From: Candida dubliniensis CD36
Taxonomy: Eukaryota > Ascomycota > Pichiomycetes > Serinales > Debaryomycetaceae
DNA length: 64,000 nucleotides
Assembly (NCBI RefSeq): GCF_000026945.1
Contig: NC_012865.1
Coordinates: forward strand, 806,001-870,000
Reading direction: 5' to 3'
Shown: in pieces, positions 35,183 to 44,995 of the stretch
Layout of the letters: each line of letters opens with the position of its first letter
Numbering within the stretch: position 1 is the stretch's first letter
Position numbers and translations under genes: made by a program
The notes under the pieces: generated by a model
The model's database searches: none
The model's input: only the letters and a program-made list of their open reading frames with translations
Told to the model about the DNA's origin: nothing

Positions 35183-36628
35183 TTATAATAAGTTCAAAGC
35201 CAAAGCAACTAAAGAACCAAAAGTCACAGTTGGAAGAGTAGCAGCAATACCACCAGATCTAGTACTGGAACCAGAACCTGAGCCTGATCCAGATGAAGTT
35301 GAAGAGCCGGAACCTGAATCGGAACCGGAACCGGAACCAGATCTAGTCGAAGATGATCCGGAACCAGAACCTGAACCTGAACCTGAGCTTGATGAATCTG
35401 AACCACTTCCACTTCTTGTAGCAGAACTTGAACCTGAACCTGAACCTGATCTGCTGCTTGTTCCATTAGCAGATCCTGAGCCAGATGTAATAGTTGTCAT
35501 ACTACCTGATCTGCTACTTGTTCCATTGGCAGATCCTGAACCTGATGTAATAGTTGTCATACTAGCAGCATTAGAACCTGAACCTGTAGTAGCACCAGTT
35601 CTAGAAGCAGTACCTGATTCTGAACCAGTATTGGTGGCTGTTCTGGCAGCAGCAGCAGCAGAACCAGAGGCATCTGAACCAGAAGCAGCATCAGCAGCAG
35701 TGGATGCGGCATTAGCCTCAGCAGAACCAGAAGCATCTGAACCGGAAGCAGCACCAGAAGCAGTAGCAGCATTAGCAGTGTCTGAGCCAGTGGCAGCACC
35801 AGAAGCAGTAGCAGCATTGGCAGCGTCTGAGCCAGTGGCAGCACCAGAAGCAGTAGCAGCATTGGCAGCGTCAGAACCAGTTGCATTTGCTGGGTCAGAT
35901 GCAGCGTTAGTAGCATCAACAGCAGCAGTAGATCCTGCATTCGTAGCATCTGTAGCACCTGTACCATCAGTAGAACCAACATTCACAGCAACTGCAGTAC
36001 CAGCAGTGTTGGCGTTGTTTGCATCAGCAGTTCCACTAGCACCATCATTACCATTAGTAGCGGCGGCAGCATCAGTGGCAGCACCATCAGTATTGGCTGT
36101 GTCAGCATTAGCATCTGTAGCAGCACCATCAGTATTGGCTGCAGCAGCATTAGCATCTGTGGCAGCACCATCAGTATTGGCTGCAGCAGCATTAGCATCA
36201 GTGGCAGTACCATCAGTATTGGCTGCGGCAGCATTAGCATCTGTAGCAGCACCATCAGTATTGGCTGTGGCAGCATTAGCATCAGTGGCAGCACCATCAG
36301 TATTGGCTGTGGCAGTGGCAGTATCACCGCCTGCAGATTGACCTTGAGAGCCATTACTTACACCAAAGTTACAGTAGTAGGCACGAAGATCTTGGGCAGA
36401 AACGTTGGAGTCATAGTTGGAACAGTCACATTGAGCCAATTCAGACCAATAGCCTTCATCACCACACAAACATCTCAAAGTATCAGATTGAGAACCAACA
36501 GTACCGGCACCACCACATGATTGTTGTTTTTGGTAGGCGTTAGTACAGTGGTCGTTACAAGTTTGGTCAGCTCTTTTTGCGGCAAGGGCAATTTGGAAAA
36601 GTGCAAAGAATAATGGAGTTGATCTCAT
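35183..36628 (-). CDS. IHD1: Secreted GPI-anchored cell-wall protein with eight-Cys module
   Basis: This 481-residue protein has a signal peptide (residues 1 to about 17, MRSTPLFFALFQIALAA). An eight-cysteine module follows: C24, C28, C38, C53, C55, C67, C69, C86, with Asp49 four residues before C53. Then comes a long Ala/Thr/Asp-rich repeat region, a Ser/Gly-rich region and a hydrophobic C-terminal tail (LPTVTFGSLVALALNLL) typical of GPI attachment. Two in-frame arrays lie inside: six copies of a 14-residue unit starting NTDG and three of a 15-residue unit starting GSD. Repeat number probably differs between alleles. In Candida this locus (IHD1) is known as induced in hyphal development. It is the first of three tandem paralogues with the split gene and PGA61. 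Confidence 0.88.
   Translation of the reverse strand: MRSTPLFFALFQIALAAKRADQTCNDHCTNAYQKQQSCGGAGTVGSQSDTLRCLCGDEGYWSELAQCDCSNYDSNVSAQDLRAYYCNFGVSNGSQGQSAGGDTATATANTDGAATDANAATANTDGAATDANAAAANTDGTATDANAAAANTDGAATDANAAAANTDGAATDANADTANTDGAATDAAAATNGNDGASGTADANNANTAGTAVAVNVGSTDGTGATDATNAGSTAAVDATNAASDPANATGSDAANAATASGAATGSDAANAATASGAATGSDTANAATASGAASGSDASGSAEANAASTAADAASGSDASGSAAAAARTATNTGSESGTASRTGATTGSGSNAASMTTITSGSGSANGTSSRSGSMTTITSGSGSANGTSSRSGSGSGSSSATRSGSGSDSSSSGSGSGSGSGSSSTRSGSGSGSDSGSGSSTSSGSGSGSGSSTRSGGIAATLPTVTFGSLVALALNLL
35744..35878 (-). repeat. Three 45-bp repeats in IHD1
   Basis: Three consecutive 45-bp units encode the 15-residue pattern GSDxANAATASGAAx. They lie C-terminal to the 42-bp array in the same coding sequence. 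Confidence 0.8.
36053..36304 (-). repeat. Six 42-bp repeats in IHD1
   Basis: Six consecutive 42-bp units encode 14 residues of the pattern NTDG-A-ATDAN-A-A-x-A. They differ by a few substitutions. Being multiples of three bases, copy changes keep the frame. Confidence 0.85.
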
Positions 36629-38749: not shown

Positions 38750-39111
38750 CTATAAAAGATTAAGTGCTAAAACTGCTAATGCACCAACTGACAAAGGAAT
38801 CATCTTTGAACCCAGATTTTCTAATTGAACATTAACTTGTGGTAATGAAGTAGAATCATTCATTCCTTGAAGACTTGGTGCTTGAGCAAGTTCAGGTACT
38901 TCAGTTGTTGGGTCTGTTGCAGCTGCTACTGCTGGCAAAAATGATTCGGTTACAACATAAGTTGGATCCACCAAAATTTCACTTAATGTTGTTGCATTAG
39001 ATAAAGGTGATTGTGGTGCACTTCCAGAAACGTTTGCACAAGTTTGTGATTTAACAAAATCAACATCCAACAAACCAGGATTGATGCAATCACAGTCAGC
39101 ATAGTACAGCC
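38750..39111 (-). pseudogene. C-terminal part of split eight-Cys GPI protein gene
   Basis: This is the 3' exon-like remainder of a surface-protein gene cut by a retroelement. It encodes YYADCDCINPGLL, then a Thr/Pro/Ala-rich stretch with N-glycosylation sites and a GPI-type hydrophobic tail (PLSVGALAVLALNLL). Without the 4.5-kb insert the frame joins exactly to 43654-43840, giving a 182-residue protein with no internal stop. The ADCDCINP motif matches PGA61 exactly. Reading upstream from here the frame runs into the LTR to 39151, which is not part of the original gene. Confidence 0.9.
39107..39111. repeat. Left target-site duplication (CAGCC)
   Basis: CAGCC directly precedes the 5' LTR and is repeated exactly after the 3' LTR at 43649-43653. 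Five bp is the usual duplication length for Ty1/copia-type integrases. Confidence 0.95.
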
Positions 39112-39524
39112 TGTTGTGATATAAGTAATGCAAGCACAAAGACGAATCCACAGTTGAAATATATTACACTGAGGGGTTAAACTGAATATAATAAATTAAT
39201 ATGTTATTGTGATTCACGTGTGAAATAGAATATATAGGAAGAGACTTAACTAACGGGTGTGTTAATCCTCGGCACTTGTCCACAAGAGCGGGGATTAATC
39301 ATAATGTGAAGAGTGTGTTAGAAAGAGGAAGGGAATTATAAGTACTGCAGAATTCCCTTTAGACTAGCCACTAACTGTTGAAGAACCAACGTTCTAAATA
39401 TATTCAGTATGGAGTATCACCTTAATACTTTATGCTATACTTTTCCATCAGTTTTTATTATCATTCTCTATCCATTCAATTATATCTATAACTGGTTCTA
39501 CTTAAGAGGAATAACCAGTTAACA
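39112..39524 (+). repeat. 5' LTR (413 bp)
   Basis: It begins TGTTGTGATATAAG and ends CCAGTTAACA. It matches the right LTR over its full length except for four or five small differences: CC inserted in the right copy, TTG versus AG, a C/T substitution and one T length change. A 9-bp inverted repeat (39489-39497 with 39513-39521) lies at the right end. Confidence 0.97.
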
Positions 39525-39537
39525 GGTTATGAGCCTC
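39525..39537 (+). other. Primer-binding site for half initiator tRNA-Met
   Basis: GGTTATGAGCC begins at the first base after the LTR. It is complementary to the anticodon stem-loop of initiator tRNA-Met (GGCTCATAACC, containing the CAT anticodon). This is the internal-fragment priming used by Ty5 and copia rather than 3'-end priming. Confidence 0.8.
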
Positions 39538-41468
39538 GCACGACTGGAAAACTATAGTAGGTCAAATTGTTGTTGAGATAAAAGAAGAATACATAATTTT
39601 CAAGTTACAATTATTGGAAAACAGCAATCACTACTATTAGTTCCACTGCAACTACTACTGATACTATTGTTATCGTCATAATTATTGTCACCAACATTAT
39701 TATCATATATCTGAATCATTTTTGACGCTCCACGTTTTATTCCCTTATCAAGATACCATCTGCTGATAAATTGAATAAACTTATTGAAGAAGTTGATAAT
39801 CAAGATAAATTACAATTAATTGAAAGAATCAAATCTATATATTAAAACACTTTATGAATTACTACAAGACAGAATAGTTCAATTATCAAATATATTTCGT
39901 CAATTAAAATTCACAGAATCATTACACTAATACAGAAATCAATCCAATCAAATAAAACAAATGATTATAATTATCGAGTAATTAATAATAGTAATTTCAT
40001 TTTTCCTTAGACAATAACAGCAATTTCACTTCACAAATTTTTGATCAAACGTCACCAGATATTAATACCAATAACAATATTTTTCCACGTGATAAATACG
40101 CAATTTAATGAAATCGATAATTTAAAGTAATTATGTTTAAACAATTAACTGATTTAAAATAAAATTAAAATAATTTGAGAATACAAACAAAGTAATGTAT
40201 ATGAGTCAATGGAAGAAATTAATGATAGCTTAGAAAATTATTAAATAACATGGATACACTGGGGGTATTTAGAATAAAATCCTTCAATATTAAGTAATAA
40301 ATTATTTAGAAATCCAGGAATAAAACTAGAACATAGGAGAGAGACTTGAATAAGATGTCAAACTTTACATTATTGGGAGATTTTTAAAGTTATTAAACTT
40401 CAATTGAAATGCCAAGGTGTCTGTGAGATAACTACACTTGGTTGAGTGGGTTGATGTTGGCTAAAAGAAAATAAAGAGACGGAATCTTTAATATTATACT
40501 CAATAGGCTTAGCGTGACATCTGTCCTTGGGATTAAGTTATCCATTTCTTAACTTTAAACTTTTACAAAATTGTCCTGACTAACATGAAACGATTCATTG
40601 GGAATCTTTCTTTACTTCATTATCTGAGCTGAGGTTATTAAGAAAATCAATTGACAACGTGTTCAAAGAAAAGAAATATACAAGTACAATACGTGAGTCA
40701 ATGTTAACAAAATTATTTTGGTAAAGATCAAAGCCAATTGCGAAATGAATGGATGCTATGTGAAATAAAAGTGTTCAGAGTGGAGAAGAATGGTCTACTG
40801 CAAATATTACGACTATATATATGTACAACTATTGGAGACACAAGATGATTAGTGTACAATACTGCTAGGGATAGTTTATTTATGATTGCATTTGACTATA
40901 CTAATTGGAAAAGGAATCACTTCGGAATTTCTTTGTCATTTAAGGTATGTTGTTTTTAATTTATAATGATGAAGGGCTCATCACTCAACAAAGAATACAA
41001 GCCAATAAAGGGAAAATACATGATTGATTAATACTATAAGTAACTAAATGGTATTCAACTACTAGAGTCTTGATTCCACAGCAAACTTATAAATGGGAAA
41101 AGCAAATAATATTCTCATGGATGCCCAATCTCGTGTTCTTAGAGAAATACTCTTATTTGTGGAGAACAATGAATGCCTCTGGCATGCAAAGTACAAAGAT
41201 AGATATGCAAAGAACTCAAATACTATTAACGATTTATGTCTAGCAATTAATCAAGAATATGCCATCAAACTATAGACACTATGACTTATAATTCATGTTT
41301 GTCTTGTTGATTTAAGAGAAAGTTTTTGATTTTGTTTTAAGATTATCATTCTGGGTATTGTTATTTGGCATGTAACTTTTTATGCAGCCATGATAAAAGA
41401 TATCTGAATCTTTCTGAATGTATAAACAATTTTTCATACGATCCTACGATGTTAGGAGTGACCATCCA

Positions 41469-41507
41469 AAGTATATTAAGATACTGAAAGTGTTATACAA
41501 TTTAAAA
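41469..41507 (+). pseudogene. Reverse transcriptase remnant
   Basis: Frame starting 41469 reads KYIKILKVLYNLK followed by a stop; LKVLYNLK resembles the LKALYGLKQ motif of copia reverse transcriptases. Stops on both sides show that it is dead. Confidence 0.5.
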
Positions 41508-42050
41508 TGATGCTGGTTTTACATTGAACAAGATCAGACAAGAGTAAACTAGAGTTTCAATCAGACCTATCTATAGTCTTCAAATTGGTTAGGGTCGTGG
41601 ACTATGCTTATTGTTTAAACGGTCTTTATTAATCACTTGATTGTTAATAGTACGACCAAGATGGCTGGCTACATTGCCTCTAGCAATCATTCACGTGCTA
41701 AAAGCTTAACATCCACTGGTTTGCCCATGAAAGAAAGTCAAATTAACCATGTTAACTACAAGAAGAGATTTATCGAAAGATTAGAGTGCTCCGAAGAAAT
41801 ATTAATTATCAAATAAGTCACCCAGCACTTTTGGGATCTGGTAAACTAGAAATGGACAATGGTGGATATATATTTTTTTACCAGCCCAGTCCGAATTTGG
41901 AAAATATGCATGAATTATGGTCTTTTGAAACGATATTAACTAACTGTACTAGTTGAGGACATCTGATTAATTTTTTTTCCATAACACCAGTTTTGTTTTG
42001 TCTTCACAATGACCTCGTTTTTAATATGGAATACACTTTGGTTACGTGAG

Positions 42051-42290
42051 ATAGATTCTTGCCTTACAGGGGAGAAGCCACATTGTACTAATTCAAGAAT
42101 ATATTCCAGAATCATGATTATAGAAAGTGAGTTTATTTATTGAAATGGTAATTGAAGTCCATTGAATAGAGTCCTGTCTTAAGGGGAGAAGACTTAAGAT
42201 GGCAATACAGGAATACATTGAGTTTGTTTCTTTTATTGAAATGACAGTTTGAAGTACATACAATAGATTCTTGTCTTAAGGGGAGAAATA
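42051..42290 (+). repeat. Three imperfect ~100-bp repeats with purine-rich core
   Basis: Three units beginning near 42051, 42165 and 42262 share ATAGATTCTTGTCTTAAGGG-type sequence with a purine core (AGGGGAGAA), followed by a partly conserved TATTGAAATG segment. The core resembles the element's own polypurine tract at 43226-43235. Confidence 0.65.
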
Positions 42291-42697
42291 GAAGATGGTA
42301 ATTCAAGAATAAATTGTACAATCTGTTGATTCTGGATTAAGACATTAGCCTACTAGAATAAAAGCTAACTATCAGAATTAAGAAACCATCAAGCTTGACC
42401 AAACTGTTAGGATTACAATATGCTCAACATTATAGATTGTTGGAATCATCATCTAATTAGAAAGTTGACAAATGAGAAATCTAATTAAGTGTGACAGTAT
42501 TATGATTTGGTAAATATATGATAACAGGCACAAGAGTCTGATGGATAAGCCTGTTGTAAGAAGAAGAATCAAAACATATTGACTTCTAAAGTTACTATGC
42601 AAACACAAATACTTGAAGTGATTTCCATAGATGTGAGCATAAGAAATGTGATAGAATTTTTGGATAATTATACCTATTGATTATCAATTAACAGCAG

Positions 42698-42763
42698 GTA
42701 CAACATAATTCAAGTACTAAAGTGATTTATGCTGTTGCAGAAGGTGTGAATAAACTCAAAGGA
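42698..42763 (+). pseudogene. RNase H remnant
   Basis: An open 22-codon stretch reads VQHNSSTKVIYAVAEGVNKL, matching the end of copia RNase H (the SSTEAEYxAxxEGV region). It lies 3' of the RT remnant, as expected. Confidence 0.6.
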
Positions 42764-43225
42764 TCATGAAGAATTCTTGCTGAAACAAGAATTGATTACT
42801 TTATGAATAGAGTTTGGAATCTAAGATATCAAGAATATTAATGAAAAAGATTATGCATAAGTGATGTTAAAATCAAGTGTCTGTTGTCCTGAATGTGAAA
42901 TAACTCGTGAACTGTATGTGCATACGGAGATAACTAAAGCTACTTTGGAATAATTGATGTGGCATTGAAAGCTTGAAATATCAAAAATATGTTACTAGCC
43001 TAGATGTTATATTGATAAAAGGAAGCTCATCTTTGCAAATACACTCATATGAATTCATTAATGATCGTTCAAACACAGAGTCAGATAGAAGGAGACTTCT
43101 AAATTAATTACTAAACTTGTGATAGAATTGAAAGTTAAACTGATCAAATGGAGTCTTACCTTATGTGAAAATGTTGTTATAAATAATGTAAGACAACATT
43201 GATCTGAAAACATAGTAGCTTGCAT

Positions 43226-43235
43226 TAAGGGGGAA
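43226..43235 (+). other. Polypurine tract
   Basis: TAAGGGGGAA lies immediately before the TG of the 3' LTR, the expected site of plus-strand priming. Confidence 0.85.
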
Positions 43236-43648
43236 TGTTGTGATATAAGTAATGCAAGCACAAAGACGAATCCCCACAGTTGAAATATATTACACTGAGG
43301 GGTTAAACTGAATATAATAAATTAATATGTTATTGTGATTCACGTGTGAAATAGAATATATAGGAAGAGACTTAACTAACGGGTGTGTTAATCCTCGGCA
43401 CTTGTCCACAAGAGCGGGGATTAATCATAATGTGAAGAGTGTGTTAGAAAGAGGAAGGGAATTATAAGTACTGCAGAATTCCCTTTAGACTAGCCACTAA
43501 CTGAGAAGAACTAACGTTCTAAATATATTCAGTATGGAGTATCACCTTAATACTTTATGCTATACTTTTCCATCAGTTTTATTATCATTCTCTATCCATT
43601 CAATTATATCTATAACTGGTTCTACTTAAGAGGAATAACCAGTTAACA
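43236..43648 (+). repeat. 3' LTR (413 bp)
   Basis: Equal in length to the left LTR and about 99% identical. It ends CCAGTTAACA, followed directly by the right CAGCC duplication. Confidence 0.97.
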
Positions 43649-43653
43649 CAGCC
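43649..43653. repeat. Right target-site duplication (CAGCC)
   Basis: Exact copy of the left flank (39107-39111), which shows that the element inserted as a unit. Confidence 0.95.
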
Positions 43654-43840
43654 AATACTCCTCATTCGATAAAGAACAAAGACAAACAAGATCTTCATCA
43701 GCACAATACTTGCCTCTGGTATCCTCTTCTATTTCACAACTCAAGTTGCAAGAATTTCTGGTCGGTACACTCGAAGCAATAGCCGTCTCGGTGGCAGCTG
43801 ATACGATTGGTAAAATTGCTAATAGAAAAGCTGAATTCAT
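43654..43840 (-). pseudogene. N-terminal part of split eight-Cys GPI protein gene
   Basis: It starts at an ATG giving signal peptide MNSAFLLAILPIVSA, which is like the PGA61 and IHD1 signal peptides. Cysteines at residues 31, 35, 46, 53 and 55 follow, and the piece ends SNEEYW before the interrupted CTG codon. The other three cysteines are in the part at 38750-39111. An upstream in-frame ATG at 43873 would add 11 residues but no better signal. As it stands the piece runs into the LTR and stops after two codons (LC), so no full product can be made. Confidence 0.88.
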
Positions 43841-44338: not shown

Positions 44339-44995
44339 TTAAATAAAATTCAATAACAATGCAAGTAATGAACCTGATCCAATAACAACTGTTCTTCCGG
44401 CATTGTTCTCAAATGCTTGAACTGATACTTGGCTCCAATCAGATCCGTTATTTAGTTGAGGCTGAATTAATGGAGCTTCCTGTGGTGTAGTCTCTGTGTT
44501 TTGCGGTTCGATTAAAGTATTTGTATCGGTATTTGCTACAGCAGCCACAGCTGATTCAGTTAATGGAGCAATAAGACTGCTAGTTGATTCTGCGTCGAGC
44601 TCTTGTATAGATGGGGTTTCGAGAATAGTAGTTTCAGATGACTGAACACTGCTACTACTGCTGGTGCTGCTTGGTTGTTCAGTAGTTTCAGCTTCTGTAG
44701 ATGAAGATGTTGTTGTTGTTGTTGCTGATGATGATGATGATGTGCCCCCACATATCTGAATCTTAAGCTCTGATGCTGAGAATTTCTTGTCTGGATTAAT
44801 ACAATCGCAATCAGCCAATGGTTCCCAATAATCTGAATCTGATAAATCACATAAACAATTGGTATCTGAACCCGATGGACAAGATTCTTGCTGTTTCTGC
44901 AAGACCTTGATACAGCTGGAATTACAACTTTGTTGGTCTTTTTTCACAGCAAAAGCAACTGGTAAAATAACAGCAAATAGTAAACCAGACTTCAT
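44339..44995 (-). CDS. PGA61: Secreted GPI-anchored cell-wall protein with eight-Cys module
   Basis: This 218-residue protein has a signal peptide (MKSGLLFAVILPVAFAV). Its eight-cysteine module is C24, C28, C39, C47, C49, C63, C65, C82, with Asp44 three residues before C47. A Ser/Thr/Glu-rich stalk (residues about 85-190) and a hydrophobic C-terminus (GRTVVIGSGSLLALLLNFI) for GPI attachment follow. It shares ADCDCINP with the split gene and the cysteine spacing with IHD1, so the three are tandem duplicates. Such proteins sit in the cell wall or plasma membrane. The role is not established; the pattern resembles CFEM haem-binding domains. Confidence 0.88.
   Translation of the reverse strand: MKSGLLFAVILPVAFAVKKDQQSCNSSCIKVLQKQQESCPSGSDTNCLCDLSDSDYWEPLADCDCINPDKKFSASELKIQICGGTSSSSSATTTTTSSSTEAETTEQPSSTSSSSSVQSSETTILETPSIQELDAESTSSLIAPLTESAVAAVANTDTNTLIEPQNTETTPQEAPLIQPQLNNGSDWSQVSVQAFENNAGRTVVIGSGSLLALLLNFI

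What the first reader, a model, noticed from the sequence alone, without database searches (positions are those of the whole stretch)
38750..43840. Retroelement cleanly splits a surface-protein gene
Removing the 4,537-bp element and one copy of the 5-bp CAGCC duplication leaves 549 bp that are one open frame: signal peptide, eight cysteines, stalk and GPI tail, 182 residues, no internal stop. The two halves stay intact although the gene cannot be expressed whole, so the insertion is probably recent and may not be fixed in the species.
Basis: partly seen in the sequence, partly recalled or inferred. Interest (0 to 1): 0.8.

Follow-up and report, generated by a model that had tools for sequence, protein, structure and literature searches.

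The report
Parasitic retroelement splits yeast surface gene
In the yeast Candida dubliniensis a mobile DNA element with no recognisable genes of its own, carrying a decayed piece of a chromosome-segregation gene, has landed in a surface-protein gene and split it, and an uninterrupted version of that protein exists in public sequence data.

Summary
A 4,537-bp LTR element (39112-43648) with identical 5-bp flanks (CAGCC) interrupts a 549-nt gene on the opposite strand. Both halves are open and in the same phase (192 + 357 nt), shown by arithmetic with the halves kept apart. The genome is Candida dubliniensis CD36. An unnamed public protein of exactly 182 residues, P0012, matches the 5' half at 61 of 63 aligned residues and the 3' half at 114 of 118, ungapped. 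An uninterrupted form therefore exists, probably in the same species. The LTRs differ by 2 substitutions in 411 aligned sites, so the insertion looks young.

It has no recognisable genes and fits a Ty5-like, non-autonomous "large retrotransposon derivative". Its primer site complements 18 nt of a tRNA-Met. Its LTR start and polypurine tract match a coding element elsewhere in the genome; its LTR end and body do not. The body carries a decayed 634-nt piece of the host kinetochore gene SPC24 (76% identical, frame broken) and a nested old LTR. The SPC24 piece is roughly 45 times more diverged than the LTR pair, so the element seems to have jumped long after its body stopped coding.

The parts
43649..43840 (-). 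5' half of the split surface-protein gene: 64 codons, likely signal peptide and five cysteines
   Evidence: 61 of 63 aligned residues identical to P0012
38750..39106 (-). 3' half of the split gene: 118 codons plus stop, three cysteines, stalk, hydrophobic tail
   Evidence: 114 of 118 residues identical to P0012
39107..39111 (.). target-site duplication CAGCC, first copy
43649..43653 (.). target-site duplication CAGCC, second copy
39112..39524 (+). 5' LTR, 413 nt, TGTTG...TAACA
43236..43648 (+). 3' LTR, 413 nt; 2 substitutions and 3 indel events against the 5' LTR
39525..39542 (+). primer-binding site, 18 nt complementary to the anticodon arm of a tRNA-Met (initiator type by its sequence, from recall)
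39525..43235 (+). interior, 3,711 nt, without recognisable genes; listed ORFs of 60 aa or more are 60-67 aa long (one of the four runs into the 3' LTR); the one tested (41093-41275) has no Pfam match and no other copy in the genome
39702..40335 (+). captured, decayed piece of the host kinetochore gene SPC24, same sense as the element
   Evidence: 76% identity; source gene named; decay pattern
41491..41728 (+). probable old nested solo LTR of a third family, with GAAAG on both sides; its 3' boundary was set by me where the match to the others ends
   Evidence: two related solo LTRs elsewhere with duplications CTATC and ACAAT
43214..43235 (+). polypurine tract and its neighbourhood, 22 of 22 nt identical to the coding element L020
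44339..44995 (-). neighbouring intact relative of the split gene, 218 aa
35183..36628 (-). second intact surface-protein gene of the cluster, 481 aa
   Evidence: related to the 218-aa protein at E 5.4e-15; no direct match to the 5' half alone (E 4.2)

Best explanation
A non-autonomous Ty5/copia-like LTR element (a large retrotransposon derivative, LARD) was copied by the enzymes of a coding relative and inserted recently, antisense, into a small GPI-type surface-protein gene of Candida dubliniensis, splitting it after codon 64 with a 5-bp target duplication. Shown: the split, the duplication, matching phase, near-identical LTRs, tRNA-Met primer site, shared LTR start and polypurine tract with a coding element, a captured SPC24 piece, a nested old LTR, and an uninterrupted 182-residue natural form in public data. 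Inferred: that the coding family supplied the enzymes; that the SPC24 piece entered through an mRNA and template switching; that the LTR start and tract are kept similar to the coding family by recombination during reverse transcription; that the uninterrupted form is a C. dubliniensis allele. The strain with the insert probably makes at most a short truncated product of this gene.
For: Split, phase, duplication. Uninterrupted form P0012. LTR pair: 2 substitutions in 411 aligned sites; on the 407 sites used for dating, p 0.0049, 95% 0.0006-0.018. No recognisable genes in the interior. Primer site: 18 nt against tRNA-Met genes; its 12-nt core occurs at 5 places in the genome, of which 2 are the primer sites of the window element and L020, 2 are tRNA-Met genes and 1 (L049) is unexplained; the backwards control pattern occurs once. 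Coding relative L020 (G000:C1:1376815-1382043): 435 of 435 identical LTR bases, duplication AATAT, RVT_2, rve, SH3_retrovirus and Pol_BBD domains. LTR positions 1-335: 325 of 335 aligned bases identical to L020 (one further indel); positions 340-413: 39 of 72, i.e. no real similarity. A second insertion of the same LTR type: solo LTR L021, duplication CATTA. SPC24 piece.
Against: Only one full-length copy was found in this genome; the other young insertion of its LTR type is a solo LTR, so it is not shown that the whole body moved more than once. The genome has 13 RVT_2 matches, so L020 is not the only possible source of enzymes; it was picked because its LTR matches. A 34-nt, 85% match (E 0.005) between interior 1180-1213 and fetched stretches around five of those RVT_2 matches, on either strand, was not followed up. 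Movement has not been shown. Gene conversion between the LTRs could make them look young, though it would not make the gene halves look young.
Confidence: 0.85

Rival explanations
1. An old, once-coding element sits in an old pseudogene; LTR gene conversion makes the pair look young.
For: The interior is thoroughly decayed: 111 substitutions in 577 compared sites and 11 of 12 indels frameshifting in the SPC24 piece, and it carries an old nested LTR.
Against: Both gene halves are open and about 97% identical to an uninterrupted form. If they had drifted without constraint as far as K 0.18 (my figure for the captured piece's own branch), the chance of no stop and no frameshift would be about 3e-7. 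No gag or pol piece was found in the interior by protein comparison with the fetched relatives, of which only L020 was held whole.
Confidence: 0.05
2. The insertion is fixed in C. dubliniensis and P0012 comes from another, closely related lineage.
For: P0012 has no name and one source type; five residue differences in 182, among them loss of cysteine 35. A second record, P0013 (106 aa, 2 contigs of at most 1,534 bases, marked by the tool like a protein of the window itself), equals the CD36 3' half apart from its start and a CTG reading, and begins downstream of the break.
Against: About 97% identity is far above the 79% seen for SPC24 between CD36 and the next closest, unnamed relative P0002; no record from a named species was found.
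Confidence: 0.15
3. The SPC24-like stretch is a chance likeness, or a DNA fragment that entered without reverse transcription.
For: The stretch is AT-rich, and no intermediate copy is known that shows how it entered.
Against: Chance: 449 bits against at most 41.1 bits in 20 first-order Markov versions of the interior; colinear over most of the gene, in the sense of the element. Against DNA entry there is only the orientation and the span.
Confidence: 0.1
4. The split gene still works, for example by removal of the element from RNA or two-part expression.
For: Both halves are open.
Against: The element lies antisense to the gene; reading on from the 5' half meets a stop after one codon of LTR. 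No RNA data were available.
Confidence: 0.03

Closest known systems
Ty5.L, non-autonomous LARD of Wickerhamomyces anomalus (PMC12711049, one passage seen)
   Same: [quoted passage not shown] thought to use proteins of coding Ty5-like elements
   Different: Ty5.L has a 2.4-kb interior, LTRs substantially different from its coding partners, and is described in centromeric regions; here the interior is 3.7 kb, the first 335 LTR positions are 97% identical to a coding relative, the body carries a captured host gene piece, and it sits in a gene
LARD elements at Scheffersomyces stipitis centromeres (PMC8546629, two passages seen)
   Same: non-coding, non-autonomous LTR-derived elements in a CTG-clade yeast, differing between isolates
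   Different: centromeric; host-gene capture is not mentioned in the passages seen
psi-LTR retrotransposon insertion in TLO-gamma-4 of C. albicans SC5314 (PMC6896093, passages seen)
   Same: a retrotransposon disrupts a gene in one strain background and leaves a truncated gene and a pseudogene
   Different: subtelomeric gene family, other element family
Plant LTR elements with captured host gene pieces (PMC13317346 and PMC2774510, search listing with abstract beginnings only; details from recall)
   Same: host gene sequence carried inside a mobile element
   Different: plants; from recall, often many copies

Membership tests
LTR retrotransposon insertion | paired LTRs with TG...CA ends | tested here: met
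   TGTTG...TAACA, 413 nt each
LTR retrotransposon insertion | target-site duplication | tested here: met
   CAGCC on both sides; 5-nt duplications also around L020, L021 and L022, 3 of 3 checked
LARD (large retrotransposon derivative) | primer site and polypurine tract present, long interior without coding capacity | tested here: met
   3,711-nt interior, listed ORFs 60-67 aa
LARD (large retrotransposon derivative) | mobilised by a coding partner | not testable with these tools
   a candidate partner with matching LTR start, primer site core and tract exists; movement was not tested
[quoted passage not shown]
   18 nt complementary in the window element, 12 nt in L020; that these tRNA-Met genes are the initiator type is from recall of its sequence
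Ty5-like group (copia type) | copia-type polymerase order and RVT_2 domain | tested here: inconclusive
   the window element encodes none; its relative L020 has Pol_BBD, gag-pre-integrase (23.9 bits, below its cut-off of 28.4), rve, SH3 and RVT_2 in that order over two overlapping frames
Ty5-like group (copia type) | heterochromatin targeting (recall) | not tested
   the insertion studied lies inside a gene
CFEM domain protein (split gene) | match to the CFEM profile at its curated cut-off | tested here: not met
   5' half 14.8 bits, cut-off 22; no match at E 0.1 for the 3' half, P0012 or the two neighbours
CFEM domain protein (split gene) | eight cysteines | tested here: met
   eight over the two halves, seven in P0012
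CFEM domain protein (split gene) | fold like solved CFEM structures | tested here: inconclusive
   model of the 218-aa neighbour from 3 sequences: mean pLDDT 46.1, best blocks 67-85 over residues 21-80, helical; pdb search not accepted; the second look had 0 chains to align; profile against solved sequences gave 4 weak hits, best E 0.27, none named CFEM

The most novel reading that the evidence does not exclude
A retroelement lineage without proteins has outlived its own coding capacity in a pathogenic yeast: it picked up a kinetochore (SPC24) transcript long ago, let it and the rest of its body decay, collected a nested LTR, yet kept moving by holding its primer site, LTR start and polypurine tract in step with a coding family through template switching, while its LTR end and body stayed its own. 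It is a natural system for measuring how a retroelement parasite of a retroelement persists.
Probability: 0.5. Interest if true: 0.6.

Novelty: new variant of a known kind. Interest (0 to 1): 0.45.

Why it matters
The locus gives a dated, probably polymorphic gene disruption in a surface-protein cluster of a yeast that infects people, which bears on strain differences. More generally, the element carries its own clock: the decayed SPC24 piece and the nested LTR suggest that the body was non-coding long before the last jump, which is good evidence for mobilisation in trans. The mosaic LTR (shared start, private end) suggests how non-autonomous elements stay compatible with a helper.

Tried and rejected
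Gag/pol remnants in the interior: 79 stop-to-stop pieces of 25 residues or more were compared with 3,422 such pieces from the loci held at that time (the window's own loci L001, L002, L014, L016 left out). The protein hits at E 0.01 or better all fall in the SPC24 piece and its source locus. Of the coding elements only L020 was held whole; the others were stretches around RVT_2. At DNA level the same call also gave weak hits: to AT-rich sequence flanking L020, to other parts of L025, to L024 and L036, 70% over 71 nt at the 3' end of L020, and a 34-nt match to five loci; low-complexity masking was off and I did not follow these.

Further host pieces in the interior: 40336-41472 and 41717-43213 gave no match other than themselves at E 0.1. 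The 60-aa ORF at 41093-41275: no other copy in the genome at E 1, no Pfam match. A second, uninterrupted copy in the assembly: none at E 0.1. Relatives of the split protein: only P0012 and P0013, among 36 candidates for the 3' half and 404 for P0012; these searches did not list even the neighbouring 218-aa relative, so absence of a C. albicans counterpart is not shown. CFEM membership: not met by profile; fold test inconclusive. The bacterial promoter scan says nothing about a yeast. No mutation rate was seen in the passages of PMC6143739, so the generation counts use rates from recall. Literature searches: (10 of 10 used). Passages only were seen of PMC3626586, PMC6896093, PMC6143739, PMC8546629 and PMC12711049.

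Full report
What the window is. The window is G000:C7:806001-870000 of a 14,618,422-base, 8-contig genome. The SPC24 gene on contig C3 is 100% identical to a protein named from Candida dubliniensis CD36 on a record of the same length as that contig (P0001), so the organism is C. dubliniensis CD36, a CTG-clade yeast that infects people. CTG codons were therefore read as serine.

The observation. Two 413-nt LTRs lie at 39112-39524 and 43236-43648, with CAGCC immediately outside each. On the minus strand a gene begins with ATG at 43840 and runs 192 nt to 43649; the rest, 357 nt with the stop, runs from 39106 to 38750. Both pieces put the CTG of the CAGCC duplication in the same codon position. 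Neither half contains a stop, and together they hold eight cysteines.

An uninterrupted form exists. The 3' half alone found a public protein of exactly 182 residues, P0012. It matches the 5' half at 61 of 63 aligned residues and the 3' half at 114 of 118, ungapped and at the expected positions. Two of the mismatches over all 182 residues (64 and 162) are CTG codons, shown as leucine in P0012, which I take for standard-code translation by the source. The five others are residues 35 (C to Y), 60, 86, 96 and 133. The next closest SPC24, the unnamed P0002, is 79% identical to the CD36 protein, so about 97% here suggests the same species or a very close lineage; this is inference. P0013, 106 residues, equals the CD36 3' half apart from its start residue and one CTG reading, starts after the break and is listed with two contigs of at most 1,534 bases; the tool marks it like a protein of the window itself. 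It may represent the split form, or contig ends. The assembly has no second copy of either half.

Age. The LTRs differ by 2 substitutions in 411 aligned sites and by 3 indel events. The dating script used 407 sites, leaving out positions 336-339: 0.49%, 95% range 0.06-1.8%. With rates of 1e-10 to 3.3e-10 per site per generation (recall), that is about 7 to 25 million generations, with wide limits (0.9 to 89 million). The open halves agree, but alone they prove little at this divergence: without constraint they would still be free of stops and frameshifts about 81% of the time at K 0.0025 per branch.

The element has no recognisable genes. The ORFs of 60 or more codons that begin in the interior or overlap its end are 60-67 codons long, and the one tested has no relative. 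A primer-binding site follows the 5' LTR: 18 nt complementary to the anticodon arm of two tRNA-Met genes, which look like the initiator type (recall). The 12-nt core occurs at 5 places in the genome: two element primer sites, two tRNA-Met genes and one place without a tRNA. PMC12711049 calls such a site diagnostic of the Ty5 family and describes a non-coding Ty5.L (passage). The element fits the LARD type also known from S. stipitis centromeres (PMC8546629, passages).

A coding relative. The LTR search gave 13 matches in the genome, two of them the window's own. At G000:C1:1376815-1382043 lies L020, with 435 of 435 identical LTR bases, a duplication AATAT, and two overlapping open frames with Pol beta-barrel, integrase, SH3-like and RVT_2 domains. 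Its first 335 LTR positions are 97% identical to the window's 3' LTR (325 of 335 aligned), and 22 of 22 nt agree at the polypurine tract; the last part of the LTR (39 of 72) and the body show no real likeness, apart from a weak 70% match over the last 71 nt of the body. Another insertion of the window's LTR type is solo LTR L021 with duplication CATTA: 328 of 335 and 71 of 74 aligned bases identical to the window's 3' LTR. Simple divergence cannot give 97% on one side of a point and no likeness on the other, so one of the two is a recombinant. Template switching during reverse transcription of co-packaged RNAs is the likeliest way; that step is inferred. The genome holds 13 RVT_2 matches in all, so other elements could also supply enzymes.

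A captured host gene. Interior 178-811 (window 39702-40335) is 76% identical to SPC24, whose product carries the Spc24 domain. The score is 449 bits; the best of 20 first-order Markov versions of the interior scored 41.1. The piece has the sense of the element. It begins about 54 nt upstream of the codon that aligns with the first codon of P0002; the CD36 protein as annotated starts further upstream, so whether this is 5' leader or coding sequence is open. An mRNA source is a guess from sense and span. The piece is not coding: substitutions are even over codon positions (36 of 194, 36 of 193, 39 of 190) and 11 of 12 indels break the frame. It lacks the histidine run of the CD36 gene, which P0002 and P0003 also lack, so capture may predate that expansion. 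Corrected divergence is 0.22, about 45 times the LTR divergence. The ratio is rough: it includes the SPC24 branch, reverse transcription adds errors, and the LTR figure rests on 2 substitutions.

A nested LTR. Window 41491-41728 resembles three places elsewhere at 66-75%. Two of them, L017 and L018, are solo LTRs with duplications CTATC and ACAAT; the third, L019, was not checked for one. The window copy has GAAAG on both sides, with a 3' boundary that I set where the match ends, four bases short of the others. Its divergence suggests that it too was in the element before the last jump.

Order of events, inferred. The element captured SPC24 sequence and decayed; an element of a third family entered and left a solo LTR; the LTR start and tract stayed in step with, or were renewed from, a coding family; then the element jumped into this gene.

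The split gene. It is related to the intact 218-aa neighbour (5' half E 6e-07; 3' half E 4e-04; single-comparison values). The 481-aa neighbour is related to the 218-aa one but does not match the 5' half directly. CFEM is below the curated cut-off, and the fold test was inconclusive. What the strain loses is unknown; P0012 itself lacks one of the eight cysteines, so constraint on the gene may be modest.

Novelty. Gene disruption by an LTR element is known in C. albicans (PMC6896093, passage), and LARDs are known in yeasts. A yeast LARD with a captured kinetochore gene piece did not appear in the listings; these are word searches of an open-licence library that does not hold the C. dubliniensis genome paper, so this is not proof of absence.

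Noticed in passing
L020 1516-6744 (G000:C1:1376815-1382043): A coding Ty5-like element with fully identical 435-nt LTRs; by eye, the first open frame may begin at an ATG inside the LTR end.
   Followed up: partly
window 42050-42290: Two degenerate repeats 97 nt apart, and by eye a possible third before them, each ending in a motif like the polypurine tract (TTAAGGGGAGAA).
   Followed up: no
P0012 residue 35: The uninterrupted public form lacks one of the eight cysteines (C to Y), which hints at weak constraint or a different variant.
   Followed up: partly
L026 3640-4000 (G000:C8:658735 region): An old LTR-like stretch whose end resembles the window element's private LTR end, suggesting that this LTR type is old.
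   Followed up: partly
interior 1180-1213 (window 40704-40737): A 34-nt, 85% match (E 0.005) to fetched stretches around five RVT_2 matches, on either strand.
   Followed up: no
L049 (G000:C3:769083-769094): A third genomic place with the 12-nt tRNA-Met arm sequence but no tRNA called; may be chance.
   Followed up: no
P0008: A record labelled as an Asgard archaeon MAG carries a yeast-like SPC24, probably contamination.
   Followed up: no
window 44339-44995 and 35183-36628: Surface-protein relatives flank the split gene; by recall the C. albicans counterpart region holds IHD1 and PGA61.
   Followed up: partly
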